A DNA stretch of 35,154 bases from a virus: IMG/VR virus record IMGVR_UViG_3300032271_000785, positions 1 to 35,154 of that record. One strand, written 5' to 3'. The notes beneath the pieces were generated by a model. It worked only from the letters and a program-made list of their open reading frames with translations, ran no database searches and was not told the DNA's origin. How positions within the stretch are numbered: position 1 is the first letter of the stretch; every line of letters starts with the position of its first letter. Both the position numbers and the translations under genes were made by a program. Below, in pieces: positions 7,007 to 19,953 of this stretch.

Positions 7007-7315
7007 ATGGCAACCACAACAACAACTGAAGCAAAACTGGTAAAATTATGGGCAAGAGTAGAGGCTGCAACCGTAAACTCTGCAACTGGAGAAGTCGTAC
7101 ACACTCCCGGCGTTGATCCAAAATACTTAGCCGCAGAACTGGTTAGAGAAATCCAAGGATTGTCCCAGCAATTAGACGCTGAAAAAGCTAAAGTTGCTGA
7201 TTTAACCGCAAAACTTGAAGCCGCAACAAAAGCAACAGCAAAGGCAACAACTGGAAAAAAGCGTTTAACCATTCCGGCAGATGACGTTGATACTGCAACC
7301 GGAACAGATATTTAG
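7007..7315 (+). CDS. Ala/Thr-rich coiled-coil hypothetical protein
   Basis: A 102-residue protein behind AGGAG, 5 nt before ATG. Residues about 45-80 form a coiled coil (QQLDAEKAKVADLTAKLEAA) followed by a short basic, Thr-rich tail. The strong ribosome site suggests good expression. I do not recognise a family. Confidence 0.6.
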   Translation: MATTTTTEAKLVKLWARVEAATVNSATGEVVHTPGVDPKYLAAELVREIQGLSQQLDAEKAKVADLTAKLEAATKATAKATTGKKRLTIPADDVDTATGTDI

Positions 7316-9264: not shown

Positions 9265-9981
9265 ATGTGGATTAAATCATTAATAGTTTTAAGTGTATTA
9301 TGTAGTTTATGCACAGCCGATGTGGATAAAGAAGCTTGGAAAGAAATCCATGGTGATAGCCCGTTAACCACCAAAGAAAAGGTTATTGCAGACAACAAAA
9401 CCCGAGAGGCTGAGGCCGCCCTAAGAAATTACACAAGGCTTGCAACTAGATCAAACTTAGCTATCCGGGCAATCGTAAAAGTCGCAGTCCTTAATTTGTA
9501 CCGCAACAACCACATTTACGAAGCGCAAAAGATGGAAACCGAGTGGAAGGCGCTTGATGGAAAATTGGTCAAGGCCGTTGAAACTAGAAACATCGGCGAC
9601 TTTAAACCCATCTCCGATTGGCTAGCACTTGCTTATGAAATTCTAGAAATTAAGCTTGGCCTAAGCGTTTGTGAGACTTTAAGGCTAACCGATTTAAAAA
9701 CCCTGAATTTTTGCCTCCCAGTGTGCTTTAAACCCTGTTTCTATGGTTATAATAACTTCTACGACCATTTTGTAGCAGATGAGCGCTATAAGGGCTTAGC
9801 GCCCGTAATAAGCTATTGGGCAACTTTAATCACCTGCGATATTGCATCGTATAATATTGGATACTTCTTTGTCTGCTCCCCCGTTGCATTGGTTGTTGAA
9901 AGGGCTGTAAAAAACAGAGTCGCCCCCTGGGCCGCTCCAAAACTCTATGACATGGTGTGCAAAAATGAATATTCATTGTAA
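9265..9981 (+). CDS. Exported Cys-rich protein, unknown function
   Basis: A 238-residue protein with a clear signal peptide (MWIKSLIVLSVLCSLCTA), probably cut after CTA or lipidated at C16, though the lipobox is not canonical. The mature part is helical and holds many cysteines (FCLPVCFKPCF around residues 148-158 and others), which suggests disulfides or membrane hairpins outside the cytoplasm. Two hydrophobic stretches (about 178-192 and 198-212) may be membrane segments. A role in superinfection exclusion or envelope change is possible but unproven. Its end overlaps the methyltransferase gene. Confidence 0.55.
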   Translation: MWIKSLIVLSVLCSLCTADVDKEAWKEIHGDSPLTTKEKVIADNKTREAEAALRNYTRLATRSNLAIRAIVKVAVLNLYRNNHIYEAQKMETEWKALDGKLVKAVETRNIGDFKPISDWLALAYEILEIKLGLSVCETLRLTDLKTLNFCLPVCFKPCFYGYNNFYDHFVADERYKGLAPVISYWATLITCDIASYNIGYFFVCSPVALVVERAVKNRVAPWAAPKLYDMVCKNEYSL

Positions 9982-11233
9982 ATATGATTCATTAATTAAA
10001 TGCAATTCACTAAAGCCCCATCCCAAAAACAGGAATAAGCACCCAGAAGATCAAATTGAGCGTCTTGCTGAGATTTTAAAGTATCAAGGAGTTAGAGCAC
10101 CAATTGTTGTTTCAAAGCGTTCCGGAAAGATAGTTAAAGGACATGGGACGCTTCAAGCCATCAAGCAAAATGGTTGGGAGGAAGCTCCGGTTGTTTATCA
10201 AGATTTTGAAGATGATGACCAGGAATGGCTATTTGTGCAATCGGACAATGCTATTGCGATGTGGGCCGAGTTGGACCTTAAAGGCATTAACGCTGATTTG
10301 AGTGAACTAGGACCCTTTGACATTGATTTAATAGGCCTTAAAGACTTTACGGTCACGCCCGAGGAAAAGGATCTGGGCGATGAGGAGGCGACACCTGAGG
10401 TTCGTGAGACCGATATTCAATTGGGAGATTTGTTTCAGTTGGGTGACCACAGATTGTTGTGTGGTGACAGTACCGAAAAGGCACAAGTTGAAAAATTAAT
10501 CAAAAATCAAATTTGTGAAATTTGTTTTACTTCACCGCCTTATTCTGACCAAAGAAATTACAATGGAAACAAAGAGTTAGATACAAAACACATAGCCAAA
10601 TTTTTAACTGCGGCTAAAGAAAATATAAAATTTTTTGTAGTTAATTTAGGGTATTCAAGAAAAAACGGGGAAGTGAATTGTTATTGGAACGATTACTTAG
10701 AAATCGCACAAAACAGTTCTTTAAAATTATTAAGCTGGAATATATGGGATAGAAGCGGCTTTGGTTATACAGTAGGGCAAGCAACCGCCATGTTTACGAT
10801 TGACCATGAATGGATTTTTGTTTTTGGAGAAAACACAAAAGATTTAAATAGAACCATTGAAAACAAACAAGCGGGATTGTCAAAAAAAGGCACAATCAGG
10901 CAAAAAGATGGTAACACCACACCAGTTTTTACTTCAACTCAAACACACCGACAATTGGGGACAATAATAAGATGTGATGTGGCTAGATATGTAGGCAAAG
11001 AGCATAAACATCCCGCCATGTTTCCCCTCGAGTTAGTTGAAAGTTATTTGGAAGCCTTAACAAATATTTCGGATTTTGTTTACGATCCATTTGGCGGCTC
11101 AGGAACCACATTAATTGCTTGCGAGAAAACAAATCGTAAATGCTTTATGATGGAATTAGACCCACAATACTGTCAGGTCATTATTGACCGCTGGGAGCAG
11201 TACACTAACAAAAAGGCGGTGAAGCTTGTCTAA
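9965..11233 (+). CDS. DNA methyltransferase with N-terminal ParB-like domain
   Basis: A 422-residue protein from ATG 9965 (ATG 9947 would add six residues; neither has a strong ribosome site). Residues about 10-90 match a ParB/Srx-type N-terminal domain (LKPHPKNRNKHP, IVKGHGTLQA). The catalytic half has TSPPY (189-193), a central variable region that could be the target-recognition part, and DPFGGSGTT (374-382) for S-adenosylmethionine, in the beta-class order. The TSPPY form occurs in both N4-cytosine and N6-adenine enzymes, so the base is unknown. No restriction partner is visible, so it probably protects phage DNA or marks it for packaging. The terminase genes follow directly. Confidence 0.85.
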   Translation: MNIHCKYDSLIKCNSLKPHPKNRNKHPEDQIERLAEILKYQGVRAPIVVSKRSGKIVKGHGTLQAIKQNGWEEAPVVYQDFEDDDQEWLFVQSDNAIAMWAELDLKGINADLSELGPFDIDLIGLKDFTVTPEEKDLGDEEATPEVRETDIQLGDLFQLGDHRLLCGDSTEKAQVEKLIKNQICEICFTSPPYSDQRNYNGNKELDTKHIAKFLTAAKENIKFFVVNLGYSRKNGEVNCYWNDYLEIAQNSSLKLLSWNIWDRSGFGYTVGQATAMFTIDHEWIFVFGENTKDLNRTIENKQAGLSKKGTIRQKDGNTTPVFTSTQTHRQLGTIIRCDVARYVGKEHKHPAMFPLELVESYLEALTNISDFVYDPFGGSGTTLIACEKTNRKCFMMELDPQYCQVIIDRWEQYTNKKAVKLV

Positions 11234-15292: not shown

Positions 15293-17271
15293 GTTTAAAA
15301 ACTACAATTAAAGACAAAACCCTTGGTCGTACTAGCCGAATTTATAAAACCCAAGACGATGGGCAATTAGGCACCAAAGGGTTTCAATGGTGGCTAGAAA
15401 AAGAATCAACAGCAAGAGCAAAGCAGTTATTTGCAACTGTAGCGTATTTAAAAATTGCTCAGCAGTTTAGACAAAGACAAGCGGCCCAATTCGCTCGACT
15501 TTACGGCGGCCAGTCTTTATATTCCTTTGTAGGCTCAAATCTATCAAAGATGGATCAGATTAGTACGTTGGCACCCAACCGGCCGACGTACAATCTGATC
15601 TCTTCAGTCACTGACACCCTAGTTTCTAGGCTCACACAAAATAGACCCACCCCAGTATTTCTTACCGATAATGGCGACTACAAAGAAAGAAACCTCGCTA
15701 AAAAACTTAATAACTTTATTCTAGGTGAATTTTATAGAACCAAAGCCTATGAGATTGGCGAATACATTCTTACTGATGCTTTAGTACAAGGAACCGGCTG
15801 TTTAAAAGTATTAGAAGGCATGGACCGTAAAGTTTCCATTGAGCGAGTGTTGCTCACAGAATTGTTTGTAGACATTCAAGAAGCTGCCTTTGGTGACCCT
15901 CGTCGTTTGTATCAAGTAAAGTTAATGGATAGGGCAATGCTAGAAGCTGCTTTTCCTAAAAACAAAGAAAAAGCTGCCGATAGTCCTAAAGCTTATATCG
16001 ACTCTTCAGCTCAAACCGCACAATCAGTAGCTGATTTAGTCATGGTCGTAGAAGGCTGGGCGCTTCCAAGCTCTGAAGATTCAAACGACGGCTATCATGT
16101 AATCGCTTGCGCCGAAGGAAATCTATTCAGCGAGCCTTACAATAAGCAAAAGTTTCCATTTGTGTTCCTAAACCACAAGAAACGACAGCTAGGATTTTGG
16201 GCTCAAGGCGTTGCCGAAAGCCTTTTGGGAACACAATTAGAATTAAACTCGCTATTAGATACGATTAGTAAATCAATTAAGCTTTTGGGAGTTCCTAGAG
16301 TTTTTGTTGAAGAGGGTTCTAAGACTAACAAAGCTGCGTTTCAGAATAAAATTGGTGTCATTATCCCCTATCGGGGCACGCCACCCATATTTTCAGTATC
16401 TCAAAGCAATGCCGGTGAGATGTATGAGGAGCGAGCAAGACTGATTCAGTTTGGTTTTGAGCAAGAAGGCTTATCAATGCTATCTGCAACCAGTCAAAAG
16501 CCTGCTGGATTAAACTCAGGGGAGGCGCAGCGTGTATATCAAGACATTAACTCAGATAGATTCGCTGCTCTTGAGCGGAGGTATACTAATTTTTATGTGG
16601 ATTTGGCTTACCAAATTATTGATAAAGCCGTGGATATCGCAGAGCGAGACGGAAAATACACAACAATTTTCACCGATAGACGAAAGGGAACTAAAGAAAT
16701 CGAATTGCCAGATATCAAATTGCTACAAGACCCATTTGTCATCGAAGCCTACGTGCAAAGCTCGCTCCCGAAAGAGCCGGCCGGAAGACTCCAAAAAGTC
16801 ACTGAGATGATTCAAAGCAATATGATTACTATTCAAGAAGGCAGACGCCTACTTGATTTCCCAGATTTGGGACAAATTGAAACTTTGGCTAATGCTTCTG
16901 AAGAACGAATCTTTTGTTATTTGGATGATATTATCGAGGAAGGTAAATATCAGGGGCCTGATCAGTGGATGAACTTAGACAAAGCCACTGAAATCGTAAC
17001 TCAGTACATTAATCTTTATTCCACTTGCAGACTTGAAGAAGAAAAAATGCAAATGCTTAGAGATTTCTTTGCTGAAATCCAAGATTTAAAAATGGCAATG
17101 ATGCCGCCTCCCATGCCTATGGGCGGAGCTCCAATACAAAATCAACTAGCCGCACCACAACCTGTCCCACAAAGTCCACTACTCCCACAAGGCCAAGCGC
17201 CTCAAATGATGGCAGAAGGCGGAGAAGTTAATCCAGAAGTAAACGGAGTCGAAATCTCATCTATTGAATAA
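15289..17271 (+). CDS. Portal protein
   Basis: A 660-residue portal of the podovirus type, the dodecameric ring through which terminase packs DNA and to which the neck binds. Typical features are the early NRPTYNLISSVTDTLVSRL segment (about residues 97-115), the KAYEIGEYILTDALVQGTGC helix (about 150-169), QLELNSLLDTISKSIKLLGV (about 318-337), and a Met/Pro/Gln-rich disordered end. The C-terminus carries MMAEGGEVNPEV, matching the motif in neighbouring proteins. It is placed between terminase and scaffold genes, as expected. A scaffold gene with a strong ribosome site follows. Confidence 0.88.
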   Translation: MSLKTTIKDKTLGRTSRIYKTQDDGQLGTKGFQWWLEKESTARAKQLFATVAYLKIAQQFRQRQAAQFARLYGGQSLYSFVGSNLSKMDQISTLAPNRPTYNLISSVTDTLVSRLTQNRPTPVFLTDNGDYKERNLAKKLNNFILGEFYRTKAYEIGEYILTDALVQGTGCLKVLEGMDRKVSIERVLLTELFVDIQEAAFGDPRRLYQVKLMDRAMLEAAFPKNKEKAADSPKAYIDSSAQTAQSVADLVMVVEGWALPSSEDSNDGYHVIACAEGNLFSEPYNKQKFPFVFLNHKKRQLGFWAQGVAESLLGTQLELNSLLDTISKSIKLLGVPRVFVEEGSKTNKAAFQNKIGVIIPYRGTPPIFSVSQSNAGEMYEERARLIQFGFEQEGLSMLSATSQKPAGLNSGEAQRVYQDINSDRFAALERRYTNFYVDLAYQIIDKAVDIAERDGKYTTIFTDRRKGTKEIELPDIKLLQDPFVIEAYVQSSLPKEPAGRLQKVTEMIQSNMITIQEGRRLLDFPDLGQIETLANASEERIFCYLDDIIEEGKYQGPDQWMNLDKATEIVTQYINLYSTCRLEEEKMQMLRDFFAEIQDLKMAMMPPPMPMGGAPIQNQLAAPQPVPQSPLLPQGQAPQMMAEGGEVNPEVNGVEISSIE

Positions 17272-17336
17272 TTTTTTTGAACACAACCAATGCGCAGCAA
17301 CGCAATTTAATCCCGTAGACTCGGGAAGGAGAAGTC

Positions 17337-18410
17337 ATGGCACTAATCACAGAACCAAAGTCTGGTTCATCCGTACCTCAAACAACTGCACCTCAACCAA
17401 GACCGGAAGTAAAATTTGGTATTCCGGCTCCTACAACGGCGAGAGTTGAAGCTCTTAAAGCTAAGTTGTCAGGACAACCAGCTCCAACAATACCAGCGCC
17501 GCCAAGAGTTGCAGGTAGTACGGCAAGAGCTGAGCAATATGCAAAGCTTCCAAATTATGCGCCGAATAAAGCACAAGAGATTGTAACAACACAGCCCATG
17601 CAGCACATTGAGCCGCCTCCAGTGCAAGCTCAAAAGAATGATGCAGGGGCACAGTTAAACAATAATGTTGAGGCTACAGAAACCACTCAAGAAGCGACTG
17701 AGAAACCTGTGAGCCCTCAATTTGCTGCCCTGGCAAAACAGGAACGGCAAATTCGGAAAGCCCGGATAGAGCTTAAGGCTCAGCAAGAGGCGTTGAAAGC
17801 ACAGCAAGCGAGCTTTGTAAGTAAAGACCTTTTGAAGACTGATCCTCTTAAAGCTTTATCTGAAGCTGGCATCTCCTACGAAAAACTGACCGAACTACAG
17901 CTTGGTCAGGTCGCCCCAGATCCCAATCAACAACTATTAGATAAAATTGCGGCATTAGAGGCGAAGCTTGCTTCCGTGGATGAGCAATTCACTAAACGTG
18001 ATACTCAAGCCTACGACGCAGCTCTAAATCAAATTCGTAACGATGTTAAGCTTTTGGTCGATTCCGATGCCACGTTTGAAACCATTAAGGCGACGGGCGA
18101 AACCGAAACCGTAGTGGAACTTATTAGAAAGGTCTTCGACGCTGAAGGCACTATCCTTTCTGTAGAGGAAGCAGCCCGATTAGTTGAAGATAAACTGTTA
18201 GATCGAAAACTCGATGAAGTTAAACGGCTTTCAAATCTTTCTAAAATTAAGTCACGTTTGGCAATACCGGCAGAGAATCCGGAAGAAGCAAAAGCGCCCC
18301 AGCAAGGGCAACGACAAGTTACCCTCTCCAATCAGGCGGCGGTTTCAAGACCGCTGACTGCTAGGGAGAAGGCAATTATGGCGTTTGAAAACGCTAAAAA
18401 TAAGGTCTGA
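17337..18410 (+). CDS. Scaffolding protein
   Basis: A 357-residue protein with AAGGAG before ATG. It has a long Pro/Ala/Gln-rich disordered N-terminus (residues 1-125), a coiled coil (about 125-165, FAALAKQERQIRKARIELKA), further helical segments and a basic C-terminal helix (TAREKAIMAFENAKNKV) of the type that binds coat protein. Its place between portal and coat genes is the classic scaffold position. It would guide coat assembly and leave before or during packaging. No protease gene is visible nearby. Confidence 0.75.
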   Translation: MALITEPKSGSSVPQTTAPQPRPEVKFGIPAPTTARVEALKAKLSGQPAPTIPAPPRVAGSTARAEQYAKLPNYAPNKAQEIVTTQPMQHIEPPPVQAQKNDAGAQLNNNVEATETTQEATEKPVSPQFAALAKQERQIRKARIELKAQQEALKAQQASFVSKDLLKTDPLKALSEAGISYEKLTELQLGQVAPDPNQQLLDKIAALEAKLASVDEQFTKRDTQAYDAALNQIRNDVKLLVDSDATFETIKATGETETVVELIRKVFDAEGTILSVEEAARLVEDKLLDRKLDEVKRLSNLSKIKSRLAIPAENPEEAKAPQQGQRQVTLSNQAAVSRPLTAREKAIMAFENAKNKV

Positions 18411-18452: not shown

Positions 18453-19499
18453 ATGGCTACATATGCTAGCTCAAGCAGCTCTATTGCTGTGTTAAAAGAG
18501 CTTTATGTGGACAATAGCGACTTTATGAAGGATCTCGTTTATGCGAAAAATCCTACATTTGCGCTTTTGCCCAAAAACGAATCAACCGATGGATTAGCTG
18601 GAAAATACATTCCCGTGCCGATTCAATACGGGGACCCCATGGGGCGATCCCATACATTTCAGAATGCTCAAGGTAACCAAACTCCAAATCAATACCAAAG
18701 CTTCTTTGTGTATGTGATTCAAGATTACCAATTGGTAACTATTACCAACTTGCTAATCGAACAAACCAAAACAAACGCTGGAGCCTTTGTTGATGAGATG
18801 AAACGCCAAATGGATGGCGGTATCAAAAACTTATCAAACAACATGGCATTCGAGTTGTTTGGTTCGGGAACTGCTACTCGTGGCGTTATTGGAACAGCTA
18901 TCACTAGCTTAGGCAGTGGTGTGTACCAATTTACTCTGCAAAATCCACAAAACGTCGTGAACTTTGAGGTCAATATGACCATTCAAGCTTCTGCGACCGA
19001 TGGTGGAGCTCCAATTAATGCCGGAACTGACTTGGCTTTAGTCAATTCAGTAAACCGTGCAACTGGGGTTATCAAATTCACTGTGGTATCCGGTGCTCCT
19101 CAAACAAACTGGGCCAACGGAAGTTACATCACAGTGCAAGGGGATATTCCTACAACCGGTGGATCGGGTTCGGGACCTCTCGGACAAACTGGATCTTACC
19201 TCGCAGCTTCTGGCTTCTCAGCCTGGTTGCCAGCGACTGATCCTGCTTCCACAGATTCTTTCTGGGGAGTAAATCGTTCGGTTGATCCTACTCGTCTAGC
19301 AGGTCTACGATATGATGCTTCTGCATACAGTATCGAAGAGGGCGTAACTAACGCTCTTGGATTTGCAAACCGAGAGGGAGCTGACCCAGATACAATGATC
19401 CTAAGCTTCCAAAGCTACACAAGTTTGGAAAACGCCTTAGGAGCCAAGGTTCAGTACGTCGACATCAAGCACGAAGAAGCTGATATCGCTTTCGAGGGT
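18453..19499 (+). CDS. Major capsid protein, exon 1 (residues 1-349)
   Basis: HK97-fold coat protein, N-terminal 349 codons, with AAGGA before ATG 18453. Recognisable segments are LKELYVDNSDFMKDLVYAKN near the start, GKYIPVPIQYGDPMGRS, and DPTRLAGLRYDAS. The reading frame continues into the intron and stops at 19541, but the last 13 codons (EQECPAFEESNAA) are intron-derived and do not look like coat sequence. Removing 19500-19692 joins GGT (Gly349) to ATT in frame and restores the usual C-terminal part, giving 435 residues. Unspliced message would give a 362-residue coat lacking its end. The scaffold gene precedes it. Confidence 0.85.
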
Positions 19500-19692
19500 G
19501 AACAAGAATGCCCAGCATTTGAGGAATCTAATGCTGCATAATCCCGAATATCGGTTAACATCCAGAAGTGGACAAGACCGAAGCGTAAACCATAAGAACT
19601 ACGCTCTAGAGACTGACAAGGGCTACGAGAAACGTAGGATATACAGTCCGATCTCGCAATATAACCAAATGAAATGCGAGTTAACACAAATG
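19500..19692 (+). ncRNA. Group I intron in the major capsid gene, no endonuclease
   Basis: A 193-nt intron. The 5' exon ends GGGT, pairing with GCCC (19510-19513) as P1 with the expected U-G pair at the splice site. GAAT just upstream (19506-19509) pairs with the 3' exon start ATTC (19693-19696) as P10. Other helices: P2 19514-19519/19530-19535, P4 19551-19555/19577-19581, P5 19561-19564/19569-19572, P6 19582-19587/19600-19605, P7 GACTG 19611-19615/CAGTC 19644-19648, P8 19623-19627/19633-19637, P9 19653-19658/19675-19680. AGAGACT and GATATACAGTCC match the R and S core elements. The last base is G. P3 is not clearly assigned. Confidence 0.9.
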
Positions 19693-19953
19693 ATTCGATT
19701 CCATTCTGCTTATGGCTATGTAACGGTCTTCGCTGACCGCTCCGCATTACCCCAAACAGGTCTGTGCCTAAGTATGGATTCTTGGAAACTGAGAAGTTTG
19801 GGCAAAGCTCCTCACATCCTAACTTACGGACTCGAAAATCTCGAAGGCCTTCGTGTCGGTAACTCGGATGCTCTTGAGGTTCGTGTCGCTGCTTATTACA
19901 ACTACACTTGTAACGCTCCCGGCTTTAACATGAGAGTTTCCCTGAGTGCTTAA
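19693..19953 (+). CDS. Major capsid protein, exon 2 (residues 350-435)
   Basis: The second exon begins IRFHSAYGYVTVFADR and continues LRSLGKAPHILTYG and GLRVGNSDALEVRVAAYYNY to the stop, a typical coat C-terminal region with conserved Asp/Arg and Gly positions. The frame differs from exon 1, and the open frame back to 19498 is intron sequence that resembles no protein. There is no ribosome site for separate translation, so it is read only from spliced message. A terminator starts 35 nt after the stop. Confidence 0.85.
   Translation: MRFHSAYGYVTVFADRSALPQTGLCLSMDSWKLRSLGKAPHILTYGLENLEGLRVGNSDALEVRVAAYYNYTCNAPGFNMRVSLSA

What the first reader, a model, noticed from the sequence alone, without database searches (positions are those of the whole stretch)
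19500..19692. Endonuclease-free group I intron splits the major capsid gene
The capsid frame breaks at Gly349 and resumes 193 nt later in another frame. The eight bases GAATGCCC (19506-19513) are complementary to the ligated exons GGGT|ATTC, with the U-G pair exactly at the 5' splice site and a final G before exon 2. P2, P4, P5, P6, P7, P8 and P9 all form, with perfect pairs in most, and R/S core elements are recognisable. At 193 nt it is near the small end for group I introns and has no homing gene. An intron in a coat gene makes virion yield depend on splicing.
Basis: partly seen in the sequence, partly recalled or inferred. Interest (0 to 1): 0.88.

Follow-up and report, generated by a model that had tools for sequence, protein, structure and literature searches.

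The report
Small self-splicing intron in capsid gene
A 193-letter, self-removing RNA insert that carries no DNA-cutting enzyme interrupts this virus's coat-protein gene, and it belongs to a little-known lineage of such inserts found almost only in the head genes of unrelated bacterial viruses.

Summary
Window 19500-19692 (193 nt) is a compact group I intron in a phage major capsid protein (MCP) gene. Removing it restores a 435-aa MCP that aligns end to end with uninterrupted homologues. Rfam's group I model misses it. A covariance model from 18 relatives shows compensatory changes in all seven helices that vary (27 of 45 pairs). P1, P10 and P9.0 fit splice sites placed from protein homology. 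The model also matches an intron in phage Twort that Rfam does recognise. In motif scans of 2.9 million viral contigs, 17 of 19 distinct introns of this family lie in MCP genes of several families, one in a portal gene. One MCP gene carries four full-size introns. The window intron's nearest relatives sit at another site or in another capsid family, so the lineage moves ectopically; how is unknown. Introns in phage capsid genes are known (Tuc2009, LittleE, zeta crAss-like), so this is a new variant of a known kind. In relatives, not in the window, I also found 32-63 nt core-less 'mini-introns' with group-I guide pairings, mostly just upstream of a full intron. Nothing here shows splicing directly.

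The parts
18453..19499 (+). MCP exon 1 (residues 1-349, ends ...F-E-G, last base U)
   Evidence: translation; aligns with uninterrupted homologues
19500..19692 (+). group I intron, 193 nt, no endonuclease ORF of its own
19693..19953 (+). MCP exon 2 (residues 350-435 plus stop)
19539..19541 (+). in-frame TAA that would end translation of unspliced mRNA after 13 extra codons (362 aa)
19496..19513 (+). P1: exon GGGU 19496-19499 with IGS GCCC 19510-19513, U-G wobble at the 5' splice site
   Evidence: sequence; 41-intron IGS test
19506..19509 (+). P10 strand GAAT, pairs exon 2 ATTC 19693-19696
   Evidence: sequence
19514..19535 (+). P2 (19514-19522 with 19527-19535) capped by a GNRA tetraloop GGAA 19523-19526; loop is GNRA in most of the family
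   Evidence: 9 of 9 pairs with double-sided changes
19543..19622 (+). P3: CCC 19543-19545 with GGG 19620-19622; invariant, only 3 bp assigned
   Evidence: never varies, so untested
19551..19581 (+). P4 (19551-19556 with 19576-19581); closing pair U-A/A-U covaries
19561..19572 (+). P5 (19561-19564 with 19569-19572)
   Evidence: 4 of 4 pairs covary
19582..19605 (+). P6 (19582-19587 with 19600-19605); A-U/G-C covaries
19609..19649 (+). P7 guanosine-binding helix: G19609-C19649, bulged A19610, GACUG 19611-19615 with CAGUC 19644-19648
   Evidence: outer pair G-C/A-U covaries, rest invariant
19623..19637 (+). P8 (19623-19627 with 19633-19637)
   Evidence: 5 of 5 pairs covary
19653..19680 (+). P9 (19653-19658 with 19675-19680)
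19651..19692 (+). P9.0: AU 19651-19652 with AU 19690-19691 next to omega-G 19692
   Evidence: 29 of 32 pairs form over 16 introns, permutation p < 5e-5

Best explanation
The 193-nt stretch is a complete, compact group I intron that removes itself from the late MCP transcript. An exogenous guanosine docks in P7 and attacks after GGGU (U-G in P1). The freed exon 1 then attacks after omega-G (G19692), held by P9.0 and with exon 2 aligned by P10, giving the 435-aa coat protein; unspliced mRNA stops 13 codons into the intron. It belongs to a family of about 180-205 nt endonuclease-free introns that live almost only in phage head genes. They have moved between sites and between non-homologous capsid genes, most likely by RNA-level reverse splicing into IGS-matching targets (often the GGU| of a glycine codon) or with an endonuclease supplied in trans. 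SHOWN here: structure, covariation, splice-site pairing, empty sites, gene distribution. INFERRED: catalysis, in vivo splicing, route of spread, effect on virion yield.
For: Exact restoration of a conserved 435-aa protein and empty sites in 16 homologues. Covariation in P2, P4-P9: 95.9% of cells paired, 27/45 pairs with double changes, 0/500 shuffles. For 41 introns whose ends were set by protein homology under a U|...G| rule, the IGS pairs with its own exon by 5.95 bp on average against 3.04+-0.19 for swapped exons, and P10 2.76 against 0.93+-0.17. P9.0 pairs in 29/32 cases. The family model hits Twort 16989-17212 over its full length (E 1.2e-4), the same place RF00028 scores 97 bits. Same-sequence introns recur in independent assemblies (L016/L017, L026/L036/L043, L024/L025, L038/L039, L042/L047). 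Gene distribution 17/19 MCP. Tree: the window intron (MCP aa 349) pairs with L016's aa-330 intron, support 0.94; its highest pairwise identity (83%) is to L034's intron in a phrog_138 MCP.
Against: No RNA or protein data. RF00028 finds nothing. P3 is only 3 bp in my annotation and invariant. The exon-2 frame happens to be open through the whole intron, which a frameshift advocate could use. The window's own insertion site is seen in one contig only. The motif scans need exact 16- and about 23-base matches, so the gene bias is measured on near relatives of one lineage.
Confidence: 0.93

Rival explanations
1. A decayed group I intron that no longer splices; the contig is a defective phage or prophage.
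For: No expression data; only one contig with this exact site.
Against: Every core element is intact; the window intron is the top scorer (202 bits) of its family; P1, P10 and P9.0 all fit; both exons are open and conserved.
Confidence: 0.04
2. Programmed frameshift or ribosomal bypass across a coding insert.
For: The exon-2 frame is open across the insert (ORF 19498-19953).
Against: The insert is absent from 16 homologues. Relatives' inserts of 181-205 nt in mixed phases often have stops in all three frames. RNA helices covary, not codons.
Confidence: 0.01
3. Assembly or chimera artefact.
For: Metagenomic contig.
Against: Family members recur identically in independent metagenomes, and each has IGS/P10 fitted to its own site.
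Confidence: 0.02
4. Spread of the family is by homing endonucleases supplied in trans, not reverse splicing (a rival about mobility only, not about what the element is).
For: HNH_3 in G006 and three GIY-YIG genes in G021, two records with family-A introns; a larger MCP insertion in L041 carries an HNH-type ORF (by eye).
Against: No HNH_3, LAGLIDADG_1, GIY-YIG or RVT_1 match in the window record or most intron-rich relatives. Nearest relatives lie at non-homologous sites and genes, which homing alone does not explain.
Confidence: 0.35

Closest known systems
Phage Twort introns at 16606-17506 (orf142, tail tube gene with three introns; its I2 ribozyme was crystallised)
   Same: Small group I introns without endonuclease, several in one virion gene; R1 aligns end to end with the middle one (E 1.2e-4); orf142 is described as tail tube with exon skipping in PMC11878797, I2 co-crystal in PMC4275181
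   Different: Twort's intron has larger inserts in P5/P6 and between P7 and P8; the gene is tail tube, not capsid; only 23.6 bits. That the middle hit is I2 is inferred from its position.
Mycobacteriophage LittleE MCP intron (PMC3706429)
   Same: Group I-like intron in an MCP gene, splicing shown by RT-PCR and N-terminal sequence; a weak match to my second family model R2 (E 0.002)
   Different: About 820 nt with an endonuclease ORF; no match to the window's family model R1
Lactococcal phage Tuc2009 major head protein intron
   Same: Group I intron in a major head gene (annotation)
   Different: Has an internal ORF; not matched by R1
Zeta crAss-like MCP split in five fragments (PMC7886860); Jug phages with about 18.5 small introns of about 206 nt per genome (PMC12363816)
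   Same: Multi-intron phage genes including MCP; small introns
   Different: In the crAss case three of the four inserts encode intron-type domains; Jug introns are spread over many genes and the paper's examples are terL, nrdD and DNA polymerase

Membership tests
Group I intron | P1 with U-G at the 5' splice site, IGS complementary to the 5' exon | tested here: met
   window sequence; 41-intron test 5.95 against 3.04 bp
Group I intron | P7 with bulged base and G-binding pair, R/S core | tested here: met
   GACUG/CAGUC invariant in 18, outer pair covaries
Group I intron | P4-P6 and P8/P9 helices | tested here: met
   compensatory changes in P4, P5, P6, P8, P9
Group I intron | P3 pairing that closes the P3-P8 domain | tested here: inconclusive
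   CCC/GGG present but invariant, 3 bp
Group I intron | omega-G, P9.0 and P10 at the 3' splice site | tested here: met
Group I intron (Rfam RF00028) | Score above the curated cut-off of the Rfam model | tested here: not met
   the model also scores the verified LittleE capsid intron below its cut-off (30.7 of 50 bits), so this is a limit of the model, not a defining structural feature
Group I intron | Guanosine-initiated self-splicing | not testable with these tools
   needs RNA
Subgroup IA (usual for phage introns) | Extra helices (P7.1/P7.2) between P7 and P3' | tested here: not met
   only 4 nt (ACAA) between GACUG and GGG; the defining feature is from my own knowledge
Homing (mobile) group I intron | Endonuclease ORF within the intron | tested here: not met
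   193 nt, no own ORF; no HNH_3, LAGLIDADG_1 or GIY-YIG match in the record

The most novel reading that the evidence does not exclude
The window's intron is one of a circulating pool of tiny group I introns specialised for phage capsid genes. They hop by reverse splicing between sites and between unrelated coat-protein families until one MCP gene holds four full introns. In the same kind of genes, ribozymes of this sort also excise core-less 32-63 nt 'mini-introns' that carry only the guide pairings (P1, P10 and a third helix onto the next micro-exon).
Probability: 0.3. Interest if true: 0.93.

Novelty: new variant of a known kind. Interest (0 to 1): 0.64.

Why it matters
Published surveys place phage introns mostly in DNA- and nucleotide-metabolism genes and ask why (PMC11878797). 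Here is an intron lineage with the opposite bias, concentrated in a gene that is expected to be among the most highly expressed late genes, and invisible to Rfam and so to routine annotation. It means that fragmented capsid genes in environmental phages may be spliced rather than broken; it bears on gene calls and MCP-based taxonomy; and it offers a natural set of very small ribozymes with dozens of co-adapted guide pairs. If the mini-introns are real, one ribozyme can remove introns that have no catalytic core.

Tried and rejected
Rfam at gathering and at E 10/E 1: nothing relevant (one chance lncRNA hit). blastn of the MCP region and of the intron against 50,697 phage records: no match; tblastn of the MCP gave one 24%-identity hit. 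Host: the genome scan with the MCP profile gave only two Actinomycetota MAG contigs at 42% and 29% identity, which may be binned phage, so no host is claimed. The MCP has no Pfam family and one weak PHROG (phrog_9953); no solved structure. A second core motif gave the same contigs plus three chance coding hits in long, unbroken ORFs. Idea that most family-A introns have length 1 mod 3 for a reason: 12 of 16 do, but shared descent may explain it; left open. Translational bypass for the mini-introns was considered: I see no in-frame landing codon matching the Gly take-off codon in L210 and L211, and the junctions fall within codons in L055 and L056, which argues against it. Errors in my own calls (6, 9, 36, 37, 98, 111) carry no evidence. 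The gene of L038/L039 stays unassigned.

Full report
OBSERVATION. The window is a whole 35,154-base viral contig. The MCP frame runs 18453-19499, breaks after Gly349 and resumes at 19693; removing 19500-19692 gives 435 aa. Near relatives (86-90% identity) encode the same protein without a break, and 16 homologues read straight through the junction, e.g. L006 GAAGGT|ATTCGT. The exon-1 frame ends at TAA 19539-19541.

IS IT A GROUP I INTRON? Rfam's RF00028 finds nothing in the window. I therefore searched 2.9 million viral contigs with a 16-base P3/P4 motif and aligned 18 introns. With the structure named beforehand, 95.9% of cells pair, 27 of 45 pairs carry double-sided changes and 136 cells are compensatory against 38 in shuffles (0/500); sliding the partners by 1-3 columns drops pairing to 24-41%. 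P4's closing pair (U-A/A-U), P6's (A-U/G-C) and P7's outer pair (A-U/G-C) covary; P2 is capped by a GNRA loop in most members. The MFE fold of the window sequence alone finds the same seven helices. P3 is invariant and so is not tested.

SPLICE SITES. For 41 introns in MCP genes the ends were placed from protein homology (a spliced protein-DNA alignment, requiring only U before and G at the end; two in L033 and one in L058 by hand on the same rule). Each intron's IGS pairs with its own upstream exon (mean 5.95 bp; 3.04+-0.19 with exons swapped, maximum 3.76 in 2000 shuffles), and P10 behaves likewise (2.76 against 0.93+-0.17). P9.0 forms in 29 of 32 cases over 16 family introns, as A-U, C-G or G-C according to the site.

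BRIDGE TO KNOWN INTRONS. The model R1 scores 27 hits at 138-202 bits, the window first. It does not match T4, Tuc2009 or LittleE, but it matches phage Twort 16989-17212 over its full length (E 1.2e-4), where RF00028 gives 97 bits. By position this is the middle of the three introns of orf142, whose second intron is a crystallised ribozyme (PMC4275181). RF00028 gives LittleE's RT-PCR-proven capsid intron 30.7 bits and Tuc2009's 43.2, under its cut-off of 50, so its silence here is a limit of the model.

WHERE THE FAMILY LIVES. Distinct introns of this family: ten in this MCP family (window aa 349; L016 aa 31, 123, 330; L022 aa 386; L028 aa 94; L033; L041 aa 255; L050 aa 89; L051 aa 19), seven in other MCPs (phrog_9953: L023, L026, L031, L032 (L032 by similarity to L031); phrog_267: L027; phrog_138: L034; P22 coat PF11651: L042/L047), one in a portal gene (L024/L025), one in an unassigned ORF (L038/L039). 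A second core motif found the same contigs. L016/L017 carry four introns in one MCP gene, three of this family and one of another. The three do not cluster: L016's aa-330 intron pairs with the window's aa-349 intron (0.94) and its aa-31 intron with L033's intron near aa 406 (0.92). The window intron's highest pairwise identity (83%) is to L034's, in a phrog_138 MCP. So introns entered from a pool at different sites and genes. Most family-A sites follow GGU, matching the IGS GCC(C), which fits reverse splicing; this is inference. No HNH_3, LAGLIDADG_1, GIY-YIG or RVT_1 match exists in the window record, but two relatives' records have HNH_3 or GIY-YIG genes.

A SECOND FAMILY. Another small group I family (R2; 29 of 33 predicted pairs with double changes, including a 7-bp P3) shares these genes and also fills N4gp56-like MCPs (the likeness is by eye) with several introns each. 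R2 weakly matches LittleE's capsid intron (E 0.002). L033 has a 12-nt micro-exon (T-A-D-A) between an A and a B intron; the five joined exons give a protein like its homologues.

MINI-INTRONS (not in the window). Twelve core-less inserts of 32-63 nt in MCP genes follow the same rules: U|...G|, P1 7-9 bp, P10 4-6 bp (means 7.4 and 5.5 against 3.9+-0.5 and 2.2+-0.5 with partners swapped). At MCP aa 50 they are 32 or 33 nt and begin with a stop in four of five distinct sequences (L028, L041, L210, L211=L215; L050 differs). In all six contigs with that insert a full-size intron or larger insertion starts 25-30 nt downstream; examined MCPs without the downstream intron are continuous there. The insert's tail pairs 7-11 bp with the micro-exon, and in L028, L041, L210, L211 and L073 this helix abuts the P1 of the next intron. 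My best guess is that the neighbouring ribozyme excises both. This is a hypothesis from pairing alone.

KNOWN OR NEW. Introns in capsid genes are known: Tuc2009, LittleE (PMC3706429), and a zeta crAss-like MCP in five fragments (PMC7886860). Jug phages have about 18.5 small introns per genome (PMC12363816). New here are a compact, Rfam-invisible, endonuclease-free lineage with a strong head-gene bias and clear ectopic movement, and possibly the mini-introns. Subgroup: it lacks the P7.1/P7.2 insertion of IA introns; I leave it unassigned.

LIMITS. No RNA evidence. Motif scans were exact-match and in viral contigs only. Gene bias may partly reflect descent from one capsid-dwelling ancestor. Splice-site inference used a U|G| rule, so those two bases are not independent evidence. 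The literature search covered open-licence papers only.

Noticed in passing
L028:5626-5658, L041:2445-2476, L210:4101-4133, L211:13662-13694 (=L215), L050 (reverse strand, oriented 9785-9817): 32-33 nt core-less inserts in the MCP gene at aa 50 (FAG|KYIPVP), four of five distinct sequences starting with a stop codon, with a 7-8 bp P1 that changes together with the exon, 5-6 bp P10, and a tail that pairs with the following 25-30 nt micro-exon; always followed by a larger intron or insertion. Possible guide-only introns excised by the neighbouring ribozyme.
   Followed up: partly
L055:2179-2218, L056:9929-9967, L062:7637-7674, L064:2068-2103, L071 (reverse, oriented 7251-7286), L073:4427-4472, L050 (reverse, oriented 9658-9720): Similar 36-63 nt mini-introns in N4gp56-like and other MCP genes, with P1/P10 pairings that covary between L055 (UACCGU/ACGGUA) and L056 (UUUCGU/ACGGAA).
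   Followed up: partly
L033:5318-5329: 12-nt micro-exon (Thr-Ala-Asp-Ala) between a family-A and a family-B group I intron in the MCP gene.
   Followed up: yes
L016:5001-7092 and L017: One MCP gene with four full-size introns (aa 31, 123, 330, 410), seen in two independent metagenomes.
   Followed up: yes
L053-L073: N4gp56-like MCP genes carry several group I introns each; some introns have extra sequence or ORFs in P6 (L055, L056, L066, L070, L072).
   Followed up: partly
L041:2507-3116, L210:4164-4828, G021:7373-7582: Large MCP insertions or adjacent segments that encode endonuclease-like ORFs (HNH-type by eye in L041; GIY-YIG in G021 next to the MCP exons); L210's 665-nt insertion was not examined.
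   Followed up: partly
window 19500-19692 and 15 related introns: 12 of 16 family-A introns have lengths equal to 1 modulo 3, made up of different small indels; shared descent or constraint not separated.
   Followed up: partly
window 9947-11230: Fused ParB-N-like and N6/N4 DNA methyltransferase protein (PF02195-like + PF01555, phrog_498).
   Followed up: no
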